From positions 1 through 51,977 of the forward strand of contig NZ_JXBW01000021.1 of the NCBI RefSeq assembly GCF_001447355.1: a stretch of DNA of 51,977 bases, given 5' to 3'. A model generated the notes under the pieces. That model had not been told where the DNA came from. It was given only the letters and a program-made list of their open reading frames with translations, and ran no database searches. The translations under genes and the position numbers were made by a program. Below, one piece after another: positions 24,083 through 38,236 of this stretch; position 1 is the first letter of the stretch; every line of letters starts with the position of its first letter. This stretch comes from Alicyclobacillus tolerans (GTDB lineage: Bacteria; Bacillota; Bacilli; Alicyclobacillales; Alicyclobacillaceae).

Positions 24083-24102
24083 TCTGCCCAAATCCTCTCG
24101 TT

Positions 24103-24228
24103 CTGCCTCCGGGGTTAGTTGTCGGGTTCGGGTGACGAGACACCCGTCGCAGATGGCGATTCACCCCAAGGTCATACAACCAAGAAGTCCCCCGTACCCC
24201 AGATAATTAATCTGGAGACTCGGCTTAG
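24103..24228 (-). ncRNA. c-di-AMP riboswitch (ydaO-yuaA class) upstream of the SleB-type hydrolase
   Basis: On the minus strand the conserved ydaO motif elements occur in order: GCCGAGTCTCC, GGTACGGGGGA, CTTGGGGTGAATC, a variable hairpin, GGGTGTC...CACCCGAACCCG and ACAACTAACCCCGGAGGC. This class binds cyclic di-AMP and usually switches genes off. Cell-wall hydrolases are common targets. The aptamer ends about 22 bases before the start codon and about 5 bases before the ribosome-binding site. There is no room for an intrinsic terminator, which suggests control at translation. Confidence 0.92.
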
Positions 24229-24243
24229 TATTTGACGACGAAG

Positions 24244-34826: not shown

Positions 34827-35171
34827 TTACCGCCGAACTTCTTTGATGCGCGCCGCCTTCCCGGACAATCCGCGCAAATAATGCAGCTTTGCGCGCCGTA
34901 CTTTGCCTTGGCGAACCACTTCAATCTTCTCGATCTTCGGCGAATGCAATGGGAATGTACGCTCCACGCCAACACCGTACGAAATTTTACGCACAGTATA
35001 CGTGGCGCTGATCCCACTGCCGCGTCGACGAATGACGACGCCTTCGAACACCTGAATGCGTTCACGTTGACCTTCTCGGACCTTCACGTGTACGCGAACA
35101 GTGTCACCAGGGCGAAATTCCGGAATATCAGAGCGAATCTGGTCTTCCACCACTGAACGTAGCAAGTTCAT
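34827..35171 (-). CDS. rplS: 50S ribosomal protein L19
   Basis: L19 lies at the 30S-50S interface. The 114-residue product has the complete family sequence: [56 protein letters not shown] and [24 protein letters not shown] lies 7 bases before the ATG. Unlike B. subtilis, trmD is not upstream. The gene has its own promoter, leader and terminator, so it is a single-gene unit here. Confidence 0.98.
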
Positions 35172-35235
35172 GGCCAGACCTCCTTCCCACAAGTGTTCAT
35201 GTCCACATACTCGACAGAGGACCACCGTAATTACC
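35172..35235 (-). promoter_or_regulatory. rplS leader, possible L19 autoregulatory leader
   Basis: About 64 bases of 5' leader separate the predicted start from rplS. It contains short self-complementary parts (GTCC...GGAC and CAC...GTG) just before the ribosome-binding site. Bacillota rplS genes often carry an L19 leader RNA for feedback control. Whether this one matches was not tested. Confidence 0.4.
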
Positions 35236-35241
35236 CGCGCT

Positions 35242-35271
35242 ATTATACCGTACCATTTGCAATAAAGCCAA
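35242..35271 (-). promoter_or_regulatory. Sigma-A promoter of rplS
   Basis: On the minus strand a perfect TATAAT (35242-35247) lies 18 bases after TTGGCT (35266-35271). The predicted start is near 35235. It lies downstream of the terminator of the small riboswitch transcript. Confidence 0.72.
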
Positions 35272-35377: not shown

Positions 35378-35407
35378 AAAAAGCGCTACGGGCCGCCCCG
35401 CAGCGCT
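35378..35407 (-). terminator. Rho-independent terminator after the 44-codon ORF
   Basis: On the minus strand the stem AGCGCTGCGGG / CCCGTAGCGCT (11 bp, one G-U pair) with loop GCGG is followed by TTTTTG. It begins about 17 bases after the stop of the small ORF and ends the riboswitch transcript before the rplS promoter. Confidence 0.9.
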
Positions 35408-35424
35408 ACAGACATCATCCAACA

Positions 35425-35559
35425 TCAACGTAGGCTTTGCTTTTCCGTATCGCCGCTGCGCACGTTATGGACTCTACCCTCCTTGCGCCCCAGATGTTTT
35501 AGCGCAAGTTGAATCTCCATATCGCGGACATACTGCGGCAATTCTGGCTTCACGACCAT
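35425..35559 (-). CDS. Small protein (44 aa) under a c-di-AMP riboswitch
   Basis: A short ORF starts with ATG 9 bases after AAGGAG and encodes MVVKPELPQYVRDMEIQLAL followed by KHLGRKEGRVHNVRSGDTEK and four more residues. It is basic and predicted soluble and helical, with no signal or membrane segment. I do not recognise it. The reading frame is open for seven more codons upstream (VKELVE...), faintly like the start of KhpA, so it could be a remnant. It is the only ORF of useful size between the aptamer and the terminator. A GCTCC at 35607-35611 could pair with GGAGC of its ribosome-binding site. Whether it is translated is inference. Confidence 0.5.
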   Translation of the reverse strand: MVVKPELPQYVRDMEIQLALKHLGRKEGRVHNVRSGDTEKQSLR

Positions 35560-35630
35560 CTCGACCAGCTCCTTGACTGAATTTGATCCTCAGCCAAGTT
35601 CCTTTTGGAGCACGCTTGATCTTCCTACAA

Positions 35631-35742
35631 CGCTTACGGAGTTAGCTGACGGGTTCGGGTGTAGGAAACCCTACGAGATCCAAGAATCTCGATTCACCCC
35701 ACGTACCATGGGTCCTCCGCTTCCCAAAAACGGAACTCAGCG
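35631..35742 (-). ncRNA. c-di-AMP riboswitch (ydaO-yuaA class), second copy
   Basis: On the minus strand all hallmark segments occur: CGCTGAGTTCCG, GGGAAGCGGAGGACCCATGG, GTGGGGTGAATC, a variable hairpin, AGGGTTTCCTACACCCGAAC and CCGTCAGCTAACTCCGTAAGCG. The outer CGCT/AGCG pairing closes the aptamer. It starts 45 bases after the stop of the lipoprotein gene. Downstream are a 44-codon ORF and a terminator, with no transporter or wall hydrolase, so the regulated target is unusual. Confidence 0.93.
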
Positions 35743-35786
35743 ATAGGTCATGCGAGCATTGTACGCCACATCACCGAATTTGGCAA

Positions 35787-36572
35787 CTATTCAACACCAT
35801 GTTCCAATTGACCAACCAGTGATGAAGGTATTTGAACTTGCGCTAATTGCGCATTGTCAATATCCGAAAAAATGGTGGACGTCTGAATCGACAAGGAGCC
35901 AACAGCGTCCACGACGTTGACCGACTGGGTTTGGACCTGCCTGATGTACCCACTCGATTCACCCACATAGAAAATGTACTCAACCGGGCTGCTATGACTA
36001 GCAATGGACGGGATCGAAGTGCCTGCCGTCTGTTGCAGAAACGTTGGTAGACCGGCAACGCCATTAGGCACGATCACGCGGTAGACATCACAATACTCAT
36101 CCACCACGTACGTCCTATCCATTTGCGCCAATTGAAGATGATCTTGCATGGCCTTATCGATAATATCAGCGTATCCCTGATAAGCATCAAGATTTGCAAC
36201 AGGTTCCGTTTTCGACCAAACAGTGCCATCTTGTTGATAGGCGACCTGCCCCTGTTGATACAACCCAATATTAAAGTTGTTTTCATGCACCTGAATATTG
36301 GCCATATTGGGCATTTGAAGAGTTCCGTACTCCGTAAAACTGGTCTTCAAGTTCGCGTTCTGTATCGTAACCGTCGTCAGCAACTTGTACTCTTGCGCTT
36401 GCTCACTCTTGTGCAGCGCCACCACAAGTGGTGCAAAAGAGACGTCAGGTTTCACGATGGTTGTCGCCGTTCCGGAAGCGATGGATGCCTTTTGAACCCC
36501 GGGTGCACAACCGACCAGAAGCGCAGCACAGAAAACAACCGTACCTGTCAGCGTTGCCAACTTGCCTCTCAT
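35787..36572 (-). CDS. Putative lipoprotein of unknown function
   Basis: The 261-residue product begins MRGKLATLTGTVVFCAALLV and has a lipobox LLVGC at about residues 18-22, so it is probably a lipid-anchored extracytoplasmic protein. The rest is soluble, rich in Gln and Val, with beta-type spacing (YKLLTTVTIQNANLKTSFTE, VEYIFYVGESSGYIRQVQTQ). No catalytic motif is seen. AAGGAGGGGGAACGCCG precedes the ATG, which overlaps the stop of the upstream membrane protein by 4 bases (ATGA). It is the last gene of a three-gene operon. Confidence 0.75.
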   Translation of the reverse strand: MRGKLATLTGTVVFCAALLVGCAPGVQKASIASGTATTIVKPDVSFAPLVVALHKSEQAQEYKLLTTVTIQNANLKTSFTEYGTLQMPNMANIQVHENNFNIGLYQQGQVAYQQDGTVWSKTEPVANLDAYQGYADIIDKAMQDHLQLAQMDRTYVVDEYCDVYRVIVPNGVAGLPTFLQQTAGTSIPSIASHSSPVEYIFYVGESSGYIRQVQTQSVNVVDAVGSLSIQTSTIFSDIDNAQLAQVQIPSSLVGQLEHGVE

Positions 36573-38236
36573 CGGCGTTCCCCCTCCTTGCGCCGCGAAG
36601 GTCTGTACAACCATCCGCCTATGAATATGAGTGCCAGCACAACACACGAAAGTGGTAATAGTGGCCAGTTTGTACGCGCAACGACCAAGTAGTCACCCGT
36701 TCCGTAAATATCCAGTGCGAGCACATCGGGAGCTGACGACGACAAACGAAGCGGCGTCACGTTTACAACATTCGTACGGAACACCCGCCAGTCGCGCACA
36801 AGTTGTCCGTGCCCATTCCCATCCGGAACAAAACGATACGCCGAGAAATAACGAATGGGAGAATTCCTTATCATCGATGGATCGTTTGTGACAATCTCCG
36901 GTGCTCCTTTTCCATTTGAAAGCACCGTTTCGAACCGGAACGTCGGGCTCGTCGCGGTATACACGCGTTGCCACTGCCCGTTTGCCCGCACCGTCAAGAT
37001 GTACGCCGGCGAGGCATTCACAAAAATCGCATCCCGACCACCACTCGTGATCGGCCCAATTTTAATGTCGTTTGGCACTGGGCTGTCAATCGTCCCACGA
37101 TACGTCGCGACGACCTTTCCAGTTTGCAAATCGACTATATGCAGTGCATTGTTACCAACAAGCAGCACCTGGTCCGAATGGTTGCTTGTAAAGTGTCCAA
37201 TCCCCACGACACTGCTTGCCTTGACCGGGATCGAAATGGGACGTCCGGCATCCGTGCCTAACAATTGATCATTCTGCACATACACGCCTGTGCGATGCGG
37301 TGTAACACCCAACTGCGCGAGGCAATCATTCCAATTCGCCGTCTCCGCGGCTGCCGCTTGATTTGCGATGGCTTGGAACGACGCTGGATACGCGGCCGGG
37401 TCAAGTGCAGCCTGCACGGCTTCGGAATCCGTTAGATAAGGGGTCAAATATTCATAGATACGACCATGACTCACGTACCAATTGGCCTTTTCGTATGGGA
37501 AAAAGGCCCGAACAAGATCCATTGGATTCACTTCCGCCAATTCAGCAGGCGTCGGATTGACCTTTTGCAGCTTCCCGTTCACGTCCTTAAGCTCAATGAT
37601 TTGGTACTCACCATCCGCCGTCTGCAAAACGTTGAACAACGCATCTGGCGAATCGGTGGCCGCAAGAGCCATCTGTTCCAATTCGGTCGAAGACGGGACA
37701 TAACCGTCGATGGTGATCATTGCGTCACCACCGTTTGTCGGAACGATAGCCATGGGAGCTTCCGGTGAATTTTGAGCCTGCAAATTCACATGCGAATCAT
37801 CAAGCACCCGGAAGTGCGGCAAAAACGCCCAATCGTTGAGCGGCAACACGATTTGCGACAGAACGACCGCGATGCCGCCGAGTAGCGACGCCCACGGACT
37901 TGTCTTGCCGAACCAAACGGCAATGATCCACAAACCGACGATCATAACAACGGTGACTGCGATCAACTTCGCTGTGCCTCCAAACGAAAGCGTCGCAAAC
38001 CCTTGTGCTAGCATCAGAACAAACAGCGTGTATGATACCCACGATCGACGCAGCGACCTGTCGATTGTGGAGAGCCAGACGACACCGATAGCCGCGACCA
38101 AGAGTACACCGTACATCGCAAGGTCATCCACGAGTGGACGCAATACCCATACATAAACGGCATTGACAAACAGTGCCCAAAAGACAAACCAGATCCAACG
38201 AACGATCGTCGCAGGAATCGATTTCGACTTATTCAT
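36569..38236 (-). CDS. Large membrane protein with extracytoplasmic domain, unknown function
   Basis: The 555-residue product has five amino-terminal membrane helices (about 11-135) and a long extracytoplasmic region (about 135-520). A single carboxyl helix (about 525-546) and a basic tail complete it. The extracytoplasmic part has repeated beta motifs like those of propeller (FG-GAP/VCBS-type) proteins, for example GIGHFTSNHSDQVLLVGNNA and GPITSGGRDAIFVNASPAY. This suggests a surface scaffold or sensor. It overlaps the O-antigen-ligase gene by 8 bases and the lipoprotein gene by 4 bases. I do not recognise a named family. Confidence 0.7.
   Translation of the reverse strand: MNKSKSIPATIVRWIWFVFWALFVNAVYVWVLRPLVDDLAMYGVLLVAAIGVVWLSTIDRSLRRSWVSYTLFVLMLAQGFATLSFGGTAKLIAVTVVMIVGLWIIAVWFGKTSPWASLLGGIAVVLSQIVLPLNDWAFLPHFRVLDDSHVNLQAQNSPEAPMAIVPTNGGDAMITIDGYVPSSTELEQMALAATDSPDALFNVLQTADGEYQIIELKDVNGKLQKVNPTPAELAEVNPMDLVRAFFPYEKANWYVSHGRIYEYLTPYLTDSEAVQAALDPAAYPASFQAIANQAAAAETANWNDCLAQLGVTPHRTGVYVQNDQLLGTDAGRPISIPVKASSVVGIGHFTSNHSDQVLLVGNNALHIVDLQTGKVVATYRGTIDSPVPNDIKIGPITSGGRDAIFVNASPAYILTVRANGQWQRVYTATSPTFRFETVLSNGKGAPEIVTNDPSMIRNSPIRYFSAYRFVPDGNGHGQLVRDWRVFRTNVVNVTPLRLSSSAPDVLALDIYGTGDYLVVARTNWPLLPLSCVVLALIFIGGWLYRPSRRKEGERR

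What the first reader, a model, noticed from the sequence alone, without database searches (positions are those of the whole stretch)
35378..35742. c-di-AMP riboswitch controlling only a 44-codon ORF
A textbook ydaO-class aptamer (35631-35742) is followed by one small ORF with a good ribosome-binding site (35425-35559) and then a strong intrinsic terminator (35378-35407). rplS further on has its own TATAAT promoter. The class usually controls potassium transport or wall hydrolases, so a dedicated small basic protein would be an uncommon c-di-AMP output. A GCTCC at 35607-35611 could mask the ribosome-binding site. The alternative is a relic of a larger gene.
Basis: partly seen in the sequence, partly recalled or inferred. 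Interest (0 to 1): 0.75.

Follow-up and report, generated by a model that had tools for sequence, protein, structure and literature searches.

The report
c-di-AMP switch for a small protein
In Alicyclobacillus and related bacteria, an RNA sensor for the signal molecule c-di-AMP sits in front of a single tiny, undescribed protein of about 44 amino acids, and the arrangement has been kept in most of the family's genomes examined, so it is most likely a real, working regulatory unit rather than a relic.

Summary
RF00379 matches window 35616-35752(-) at 97.4 bits; the 44-codon ORF, terminator and an upstream promoter-like site are present. The decisive result is comparative. All 15 genus genomes searched carry an ORF homologue directly behind an RF00379 aptamer. 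In the whole family sample, 34 of 41 genomes have the ORF, and 32 of those 34 have the aptamer upstream. A conserved 20-codon core is under protein-level purifying selection (pN/pS 0.19), so a relic is unlikely. No Pfam or NCBIfam match, and none found in sampled genomes outside the family.

A covarying hairpin (35572-35598) covers half of the Shine-Dalgarno. Its 5' strand overlaps a segment complementary to the aptamer's 5' arm (35721-35742). This suggests translation is off when c-di-AMP is bound. Switch direction and protein function are inferred; folding tests of the two states were inconclusive. Two genomes lost the aptamer but kept hairpin and ORF.

The parts
35758..35786 (-). Promoter-like site TTGCCA-17-TACAAT for the unit
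   Evidence: 10 of 12 consensus matches (site count there not above shuffles); sites before the aptamer in 31 of 31 leaders at >=8 of 12, 24 of 31 at >=9 versus 7.6% of shuffles
35616..35752 (-). c-di-AMP (ydaO) riboswitch aptamer, RF00379
   Evidence: 97.4 bits, E 1.2e-22, full model 1-134
35721..35742 (-). Aptamer 5' arm: 5' strand of P1 plus first hairpin; proposed alternative partner of the platform
   Evidence: Duplex with 35592-35610, -21.5 kcal/mol; 500 mononucleotide shuffles of the platform mean -11.9, sd 3.0, best -23.6; pair counts on 24 distinct leaders
35592..35610 (-). Anti-aptamer (antisequestor) segment of the expression platform, core GGAAC at 35598-35602
   Evidence: Core GGRAY pairs with RUUCC in 24 of 24 distinct leaders, but the platform was located by that core motif, so this is partly by construction; one core pair changes G-C to A-U in two leaders
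35572..35598 (-). Shine-Dalgarno-sequestering hairpin CUUGGCUGAG / UUCAGUCAAG
   Evidence: -12.6 kcal/mol, z -4.3 against 200 mononucleotide shuffles; equivalent hairpin covers 3-4 of the last 6 SD bases in 21 of 21 isolated versions folded; 5 of 8 pairs change on both sides in 13 leaders outside the genus
35569..35574 (-). Shine-Dalgarno AAGGAG, 9 bases before the ATG
   Evidence: Sequence read directly
35425..35559 (-). 44-codon ORF, MVVKPELPQYVRDMEIQLALKHLGRKEGRVHNVRSGDTEKQSLR; conserved N-terminal half, variable C-terminal half
   Evidence: Homologues in 34 of 41 family genomes; pN/pS 0.194 over 20 core codons in 15 genus sequences, other frames 0.83 and 2.29; single-sequence AlphaFold2 helix 9-22, mean pLDDT 68.9
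35378..35407 (-). Intrinsic terminator closing the unit
   Evidence: 11-bp stem with T tail; terminator-like hairpin after the ORF in 24 of 33 loci by my own scan
34827..35168 (-). rplS (ribosomal protein L19), next gene, outside the unit
   Evidence: PF01245 E 6.2e-52; own promoter-like site 35242-35271

Best explanation
An independent one-gene operon: promoter, c-di-AMP aptamer, translational expression platform, small ORF, terminator. Shown by sequence: the parts, their conservation, and protein-level selection on the ORF. Inferred: with c-di-AMP bound, the aptamer's P1 (35739-35742 with 35631-35634) holds the 5' arm, so the platform strand pairs with the bases around the Shine-Dalgarno (35572-35598 hairpin) and translation is off. 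Without c-di-AMP, the nascent platform pairs instead with the aptamer's 5' arm (35721-35742 with 35592-35610), which takes away the strand that masks the Shine-Dalgarno, so the small protein is made. Known c-di-AMP physiology (level falls at low K+ in B. thuringiensis, abstract passage of PMC6488665) would make this a small protein produced when c-di-AMP, and hence K+, is low. I infer that its conserved N-terminal motif, ELPxYxRDxEIxxAL with a predicted short helix, binds and modulates a partner in that same response. The partner is unknown.
For: Aptamer 97.4 bits. ORF homologue in 15 of 15 genus genomes, each behind RF00379. In the family, 33 of 41 genomes by profile plus one found by scanning ORFs behind the 62 aptamers of the other 8 genomes make 34 of 41; 32 of the 34 have the aptamer. 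pN/pS 0.194 in frame against 0.83 and 2.29 in the other frames. SD hairpin: 96.2% of cells paired, 5 of 8 pairs changed on both sides, 0 of 500 shuffles reach the covariation score. Arm:platform helix: 82.6% of cells paired against 54.2% and 51.7% when slid by one base; covariation score 0.264 against shuffled 0.173, sd 0.020, 0 of 500. The unit keeps a promoter-like site while the next gene varies: rplS in 20, a HlyD-like gene in 8, unresolved in 5 of 33.
Against: The shuffles do not correct for relatedness; two of its measures were not beyond shuffles (pairs with change on both sides 64 of 500, further pair types 81 of 500), and the platform had been located by its GGAAC-like core, so core pairing is partly by construction. 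The aptamer arm is itself a UUCC..GGAA hairpin, so many arms pair with many platforms; in a swap test the window's own pair did not beat other species' pairs, and at least one of 500 shuffles beat the window's duplex. Two-state folding gave an ON-minus-OFF median of -2.5 kcal/mol, but the SD was less paired in ON in only 18 of 31 leaders, equal in 3 and more paired in 10; in the window it was equal. In G023 and G034 the aptamer is gone while the ORF is kept, and the SD stays paired in their best folds, so the ORF is retained there without c-di-AMP control. Seven of 41 family genomes lack an ORF that I count. No expression, binding or protein data exist here.
Confidence: 0.7

Rival explanations
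1. The ORF is translated and riboswitch-controlled, but with another logic: c-di-AMP switches translation on, or acts mainly by transcription termination, and the arm:platform complementarity mostly reflects two similar UUCC..GGAA hairpins.
For: Arm and platform are both hairpin-like, and swap tests are mixed. Constrained folds do not cleanly open the SD. The aptamer-less leaders still pair the SD.
Against: The platform hairpin ends in the SD, not in a T run, in the leaders read. Loop bases next to the arm:platform core still co-vary (41 of 69 extension pairs in 23 distinct rows, permutation P 0.014, no correction for relatedness).
Confidence: 0.2
2. Relic: the ORF is a degenerating fragment of a larger gene and the aptamer is left over.
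For: The C-terminal half varies freely (window versus A. hesperidum: 3.5 nonsynonymous, 2.5 synonymous differences). Small size. No counted ORF in 7 of 41 family genomes.
Against: Conserved start region, pN/pS 0.194, homologues of similar length, 43-54 aa, across the family. Profile hits in 398 class genomes were all small frames within the family, and 398 phylum genomes gave only the window's own (the draws overlap in part).
Confidence: 0.04
3. The aptamer really serves rplS by read-through and the ORF is a leader peptide.
For: rplS follows in 20 of 33 loci.
Against: A terminator-like site and a separate promoter-like site intervene. In 8 of 33 loci a HlyD-like gene follows instead, and the unit is still kept.
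Confidence: 0.04
4. The roughly 375-base terminated transcript is a dual-function or trans-acting small RNA, with the ORF as a side feature.
For: Compact unit with its own promoter-like and terminator-like sites.
Against: Selection in the ORF core is on amino acids, not on its DNA letters: third positions vary most.
Confidence: 0.04

Closest known systems
c-di-AMP (ydaO/yuaA) riboswitch class, RF00379
   Same: Full-length aptamer match, 97.4 bits; 5' leader of a gene with its own promoter-like site.
   Different: The output is a lone uncharacterised small protein, and the platform masks the SD through a strand that overlaps a segment complementary to the aptamer's 5' arm. The usual outputs (K+ transport, wall hydrolases, osmolyte uptake) are recalled; the window genome's other four aptamers precede frames that I read as an MFS transporter, an ABC ATPase and two wall hydrolases (no family search).
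c-di-AMP riboswitch of kdpFABC in Bacillus thuringiensis (PMC6488665; abstract start and passages seen)
   Same: Same aptamer class; there c-di-AMP represses, and low K+ lowers c-di-AMP.
   Different: There the platform is an intrinsic terminator before a K+ pump operon; here it is an SD hairpin before one small ORF.
Small protein of the E. coli MntR miniregulon (title seen only in a reference list of PMC7266159)
   Same: A small protein as output of a ligand-responsive regulon.
   Different: No sequence relation tested or claimed; analogy of logic only.

Membership tests
RF00379 c-di-AMP riboswitch | Covariance-model score above the curated gathering cut-off | tested here: met
   97.4 bits versus 38, full-length model match
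RF00379 c-di-AMP riboswitch | Binds c-di-AMP | not testable with these tools
   Needs in-line probing or ITC
RF00379 c-di-AMP riboswitch | Leader position with promoter upstream and a gene downstream | tested here: met
   Promoter-like site in 31 of 31 leaders at >=8 of 12; ORF behind aptamer in 32 of 41 family genomes
Translational (SD-masking) riboswitch platform | Conserved helix covering the SD | tested here: met
   3-4 of the last 6 SD bases paired in 21 of 21 isolated versions folded; covariation in 13 leaders
Translational (SD-masking) riboswitch platform | Mutually exclusive alternative helix linked to aptamer folding | tested here: inconclusive
   Complementarity and some covariation present, but swap tests are mixed and two-state folding does not clearly open the SD
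Known protein family for the ORF | Match to a Pfam or NCBIfam model | tested here: not met
   0 families for each of three members at E up to 5
Known protein family for the ORF | Relative with a solved structure | tested here: not met
   Best profile hit 8cws_A at E 0.076, profile positions 15-31 only

The most novel reading that the evidence does not exclude
A family-specific small protein, made only when c-di-AMP is low, is a dedicated protein effector of the second messenger. It would bind through its ELPxYxRDxEIxxAL helix to a K+/osmolyte transporter or a c-di-AMP enzyme, giving c-di-AMP an indirect, small-protein arm, and its translation would be gated by an anti-aptamer strand that competes for the aptamer's 5' arm.
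Probability: 0.3. Interest if true: 0.78.

Novelty: new variant of a known kind. Interest (0 to 1): 0.6.

Why it matters
c-di-AMP is essential in many Gram-positive bacteria, and its known riboswitch outputs are mostly transporters and wall enzymes (recalled). A small protein whose only visible link is a c-di-AMP riboswitch, kept across most of a family, gives an uncharacterised protein a firm regulatory address and a directly testable role in K+ or osmotic control. It also offers a compact translational ydaO platform with natural sequence variants and two natural losses of the aptamer.

Tried and rejected
GCTCC (35607-35611) as SD mask: rejected, found in 1 of 31 leaders. Relic: rejected. A T-box-like reading of the GGUGGAACCCGCG element in G023/G034 (motif recalled) was dropped: the Rfam scan of L021, L022, L073 and L074 listed no T-box at E up to 1. 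'Aptamer loss locks the switch ON' in G023/G034: not supported by folding. First two-state folding run was wrong: for many leaders the P1 constraint picked an AAGCG in the aptamer arm; one search replaces it. In one search the platform was picked wrongly for five leaders (L024, L025, L028, L030, L071); one search replaces those. One search anchored only some aptamers by a sequence pattern; one search repeats it from coordinates for all 62. Alignment A4 put the genus out of register with the other genera, so SD-helix counting used 13 sequences from outside the genus, among them the two aptamer-less leaders and L112; L026, L065, L069, L070 (different register) and L028 (weak, different hairpin) were left out and L072 is identical to L023. 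One search folded 21 typed versions; the slightly different hairpins of L012, L015, L070, L071 and L074 were not in it. The arm:platform count used 24 distinct rows: 23 from the 31 leaders plus L112. Shuffle controls of the arm duplex were run for 4 of 31 leaders. Structure search was not run: a 44-aa model with pLDDT 69 would give meaningless matches. Literature: searches listed no paper on this unit; the library lacks most subscription papers, and Nelson 2013 is not held.

Full report
OBSERVATION. Infernal places RF00379 at window 35616-35752 (-) with 97.4 bits, full model length (again in the whole-window scan). The 44-codon ORF is at 35425-35559 (-) with AAGGAG nine bases before its ATG. 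A terminator-like stem with T tail follows at 35382-35407, and rplS has its own promoter-like site. I add a promoter-like site directly before the aptamer (35758-35786). The number of such consensus sites in the region is not above shuffles (promoter-like 3 against 1.9, terminator-like 3 against 2.1), so conservation is the better evidence: the best site before the aptamer scores 8 or more of 12 in 31 of 31 leaders, 9 or more in 24 of 31, against 7.6% of mononucleotide shuffles at 9 or more.

SOURCE. Named relatives returned by the same peptide are all Alicyclobacillus: hesperidum, sacchari, fastidiosus, fructus, mali, acidiphilus and suci (7 loci). The window's own genome has five RF00379 matches. 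By my own reading of their downstream frames (no family search), the other four precede an MFS transporter, a ProV-like ABC ATPase, an NlpC/P60-like hydrolase and a LysM/SleB-like hydrolase. These are the expected kinds of c-di-AMP target (recalled); this unit is the odd one out.

CONSERVATION. The 44-aa protein finds a homologue in 15 of 15 genus genomes at E 3.6e-4 or better, and all 15 loci have RF00379 directly upstream. A profile of 24 members (A1) finds it in 33 of 41 family genomes (I exclude a second weak hit in G008, and G030 at E 0.038, which lies inside a 1182-aa frame) and in 0 of the 18 genomes of the other family of the order. In a class-wide draw there were 27 hits in 398 genomes, all in the family; in a phylum-wide draw of 398, partly the same genomes, only the window's own. 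For the 8 family genomes without an accepted profile hit I scanned the ORFs of 20 aa or more starting within 350 bases behind all 62 of their RF00379 matches. One more clear unit turned up, in G021 (L112, complete platform, HMM E 2e-4 among 229 ORFs), and one doubtful case in G026 (L086, E 3e-4, no such platform). So 34 of 41 family genomes have the ORF, 32 of those 34 with the aptamer directly upstream, and 7 have none that I count.

THE ORF IS CODING. Over a 20-codon core starting at residue 4, pN/pS is 0.194 in 15 genus sequences (other frames 0.83 and 2.29) and 0.347 in all 31 (other frames 0.96 and 1.86); third positions vary most. The C-terminal half is poorly constrained: 3.5 nonsynonymous and 2.5 synonymous differences between the window and A. 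hesperidum. Invariant residues across 24 members are M1, E6, L7, D13, E15, I16 and L20 of the window protein. Single-sequence AlphaFold2 gives one helix, residues 9-22, at low confidence (mean pLDDT 68.9). No Pfam or NCBIfam match at E up to 5 (three members scanned), and no meaningful PDB match (best E 0.076).

THE PLATFORM. Between aptamer and start codon the leaders have a hairpin whose 3' strand runs into the Shine-Dalgarno: CUUGGCUGAG/UUCAGUCAAGgag in the window, CCCGCGAUU/AAUCGAGGGGG in other genera. It is in the predicted fold of 30 of 31 leaders; L028 pairs its SD with other bases. In 21 of 21 versions folded in isolation, 3-4 of the last 6 SD bases are paired; z-scores run from -0.8 (L028) to -6.5. 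On 13 leaders from outside the genus, 96.2% of cells pair, 5 of 8 pairs change on both sides, and no shuffle of 500 reaches the covariation score. The strand that forms this hairpin begins in a segment complementary to the 5' arm of the aptamer (window 35721-35742 with 35592-35610, -21.5 kcal/mol; 500 shuffles mean -11.9, sd 3.0, best -23.6). On 24 distinct leaders the arm:platform helix pairs in 82.6% of cells (54.2% and 51.7% when slid by one base), with a covariation score of 0.264 against 0.173 in shuffles (0 of 500); two other measures were not beyond shuffles (64 and 81 of 500). I had located the platform by its GGAAC-like core, so pairing of the core is partly by construction; the loop bases next to it were not selected and still match their own partner more often than permuted ones (41 of 69, P 0.014, no correction for relatedness). 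The clearest compensations are in genus g12, where GUUCC:GGAAC becomes AUUCC:GGAAU and the adjoining loop bases match their own partner in both species (L066, L067). The swap test was mixed: own pairs ranked first against other species' arms for L009, L010, L017, L024, L066 and L067, not for the window.

MECHANISM. Reading both helices together gives a translational OFF switch: bound aptamer keeps P1, the platform strand masks the SD; free RNA lets the platform strand invade the aptamer arm and the SD is released. This step is inferred. Constrained folding makes the two states close in energy (ON minus OFF median -2.5 kcal/mol over 31 leaders) but does not show a clean SD release: less paired in 18, equal in 3, more in 10; equal in the window (replacing the faulty). 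Two species, G023 and G034, have lost most of the aptamer while keeping a piece of its 5' arm, the platform and the ORF. In their best folds the SD stays paired (in L074 within the SD hairpin, in L073 partly with other bases), so I do not claim a locked-ON state. The other four aptamers in the window's genome show no such contiguous anti-arm segment: their best duplexes, -15.0 to -26.1 kcal/mol, are interrupted, the strongest (L003) by a 25-base gap.

INDEPENDENCE OF THE UNIT. A terminator-like hairpin follows the ORF in 24 of 33 loci by my scan. The next gene is rplS in 20, a HlyD-like gene in 8 and unresolved in 5 (gene calls by short motif). The unit is thus conserved even where rplS is not next to it.

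LITERATURE. Searches listed no work on this unit. PMC6488665 (abstract start and passages) shows the terminator-type ydaO switch before kdpFABC and the fall of c-di-AMP at low K+. PMC7266159 (passages) describes the class. PMC10434157 (one passage) mentions c-di-AMP only in its references. Nelson 2013, the class paper, is not held, so I cannot exclude that such genes are in its tables as unnamed.

VERDICT. A real, conserved, one-gene c-di-AMP regulon member with an undescribed small protein as output. The aptamer is an ordinary member of its class; the output and platform are an unusual variant. The protein's function remains open, but it now has a testable setting. On rechecking I lowered confidence in the mechanism slightly (0.72 to 0.70), because the platform had been located by its core motif.

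Noticed in passing
window 24090-24235 (-): A second RF00379 c-di-AMP aptamer in the same window (67.6 bits), directly before a LysM/SleB-like cell-wall hydrolase frame, named by my reading.
   Followed up: partly
window 35215-35232 (-): AATTACGGTGGTCCTCTG before rplS looks like a ribosomal protein L19 leader; Rfam RF00556 scored 34.2 (cut-off 36) in L022 but the window copy was not listed at E up to 1.
   Followed up: partly
L073, L074 (genomes G034, G023): Leaders in which most of the c-di-AMP aptamer is deleted, with a piece of its 5' arm, the platform and the small ORF kept.
   Followed up: yes
L086 (genome G026): A short frame MEVREAVPELNQLLRDAEIQERLRQLL directly behind an aptamer, possibly a diverged member with a different platform.
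   Followed up: partly
window 35787-38236 (-): Two overlapping neighbour frames (286 aa lipoprotein-like, 555 aa) upstream have no Pfam match at E up to 0.01; the C-terminal part of the first reads alike in L021/L022 by eye.
   Followed up: no
genomes G001, G036, G021: These family genomes carry 16, 18 and 20 RF00379 matches, many more than the 5 of the window's genome.
   Followed up: no
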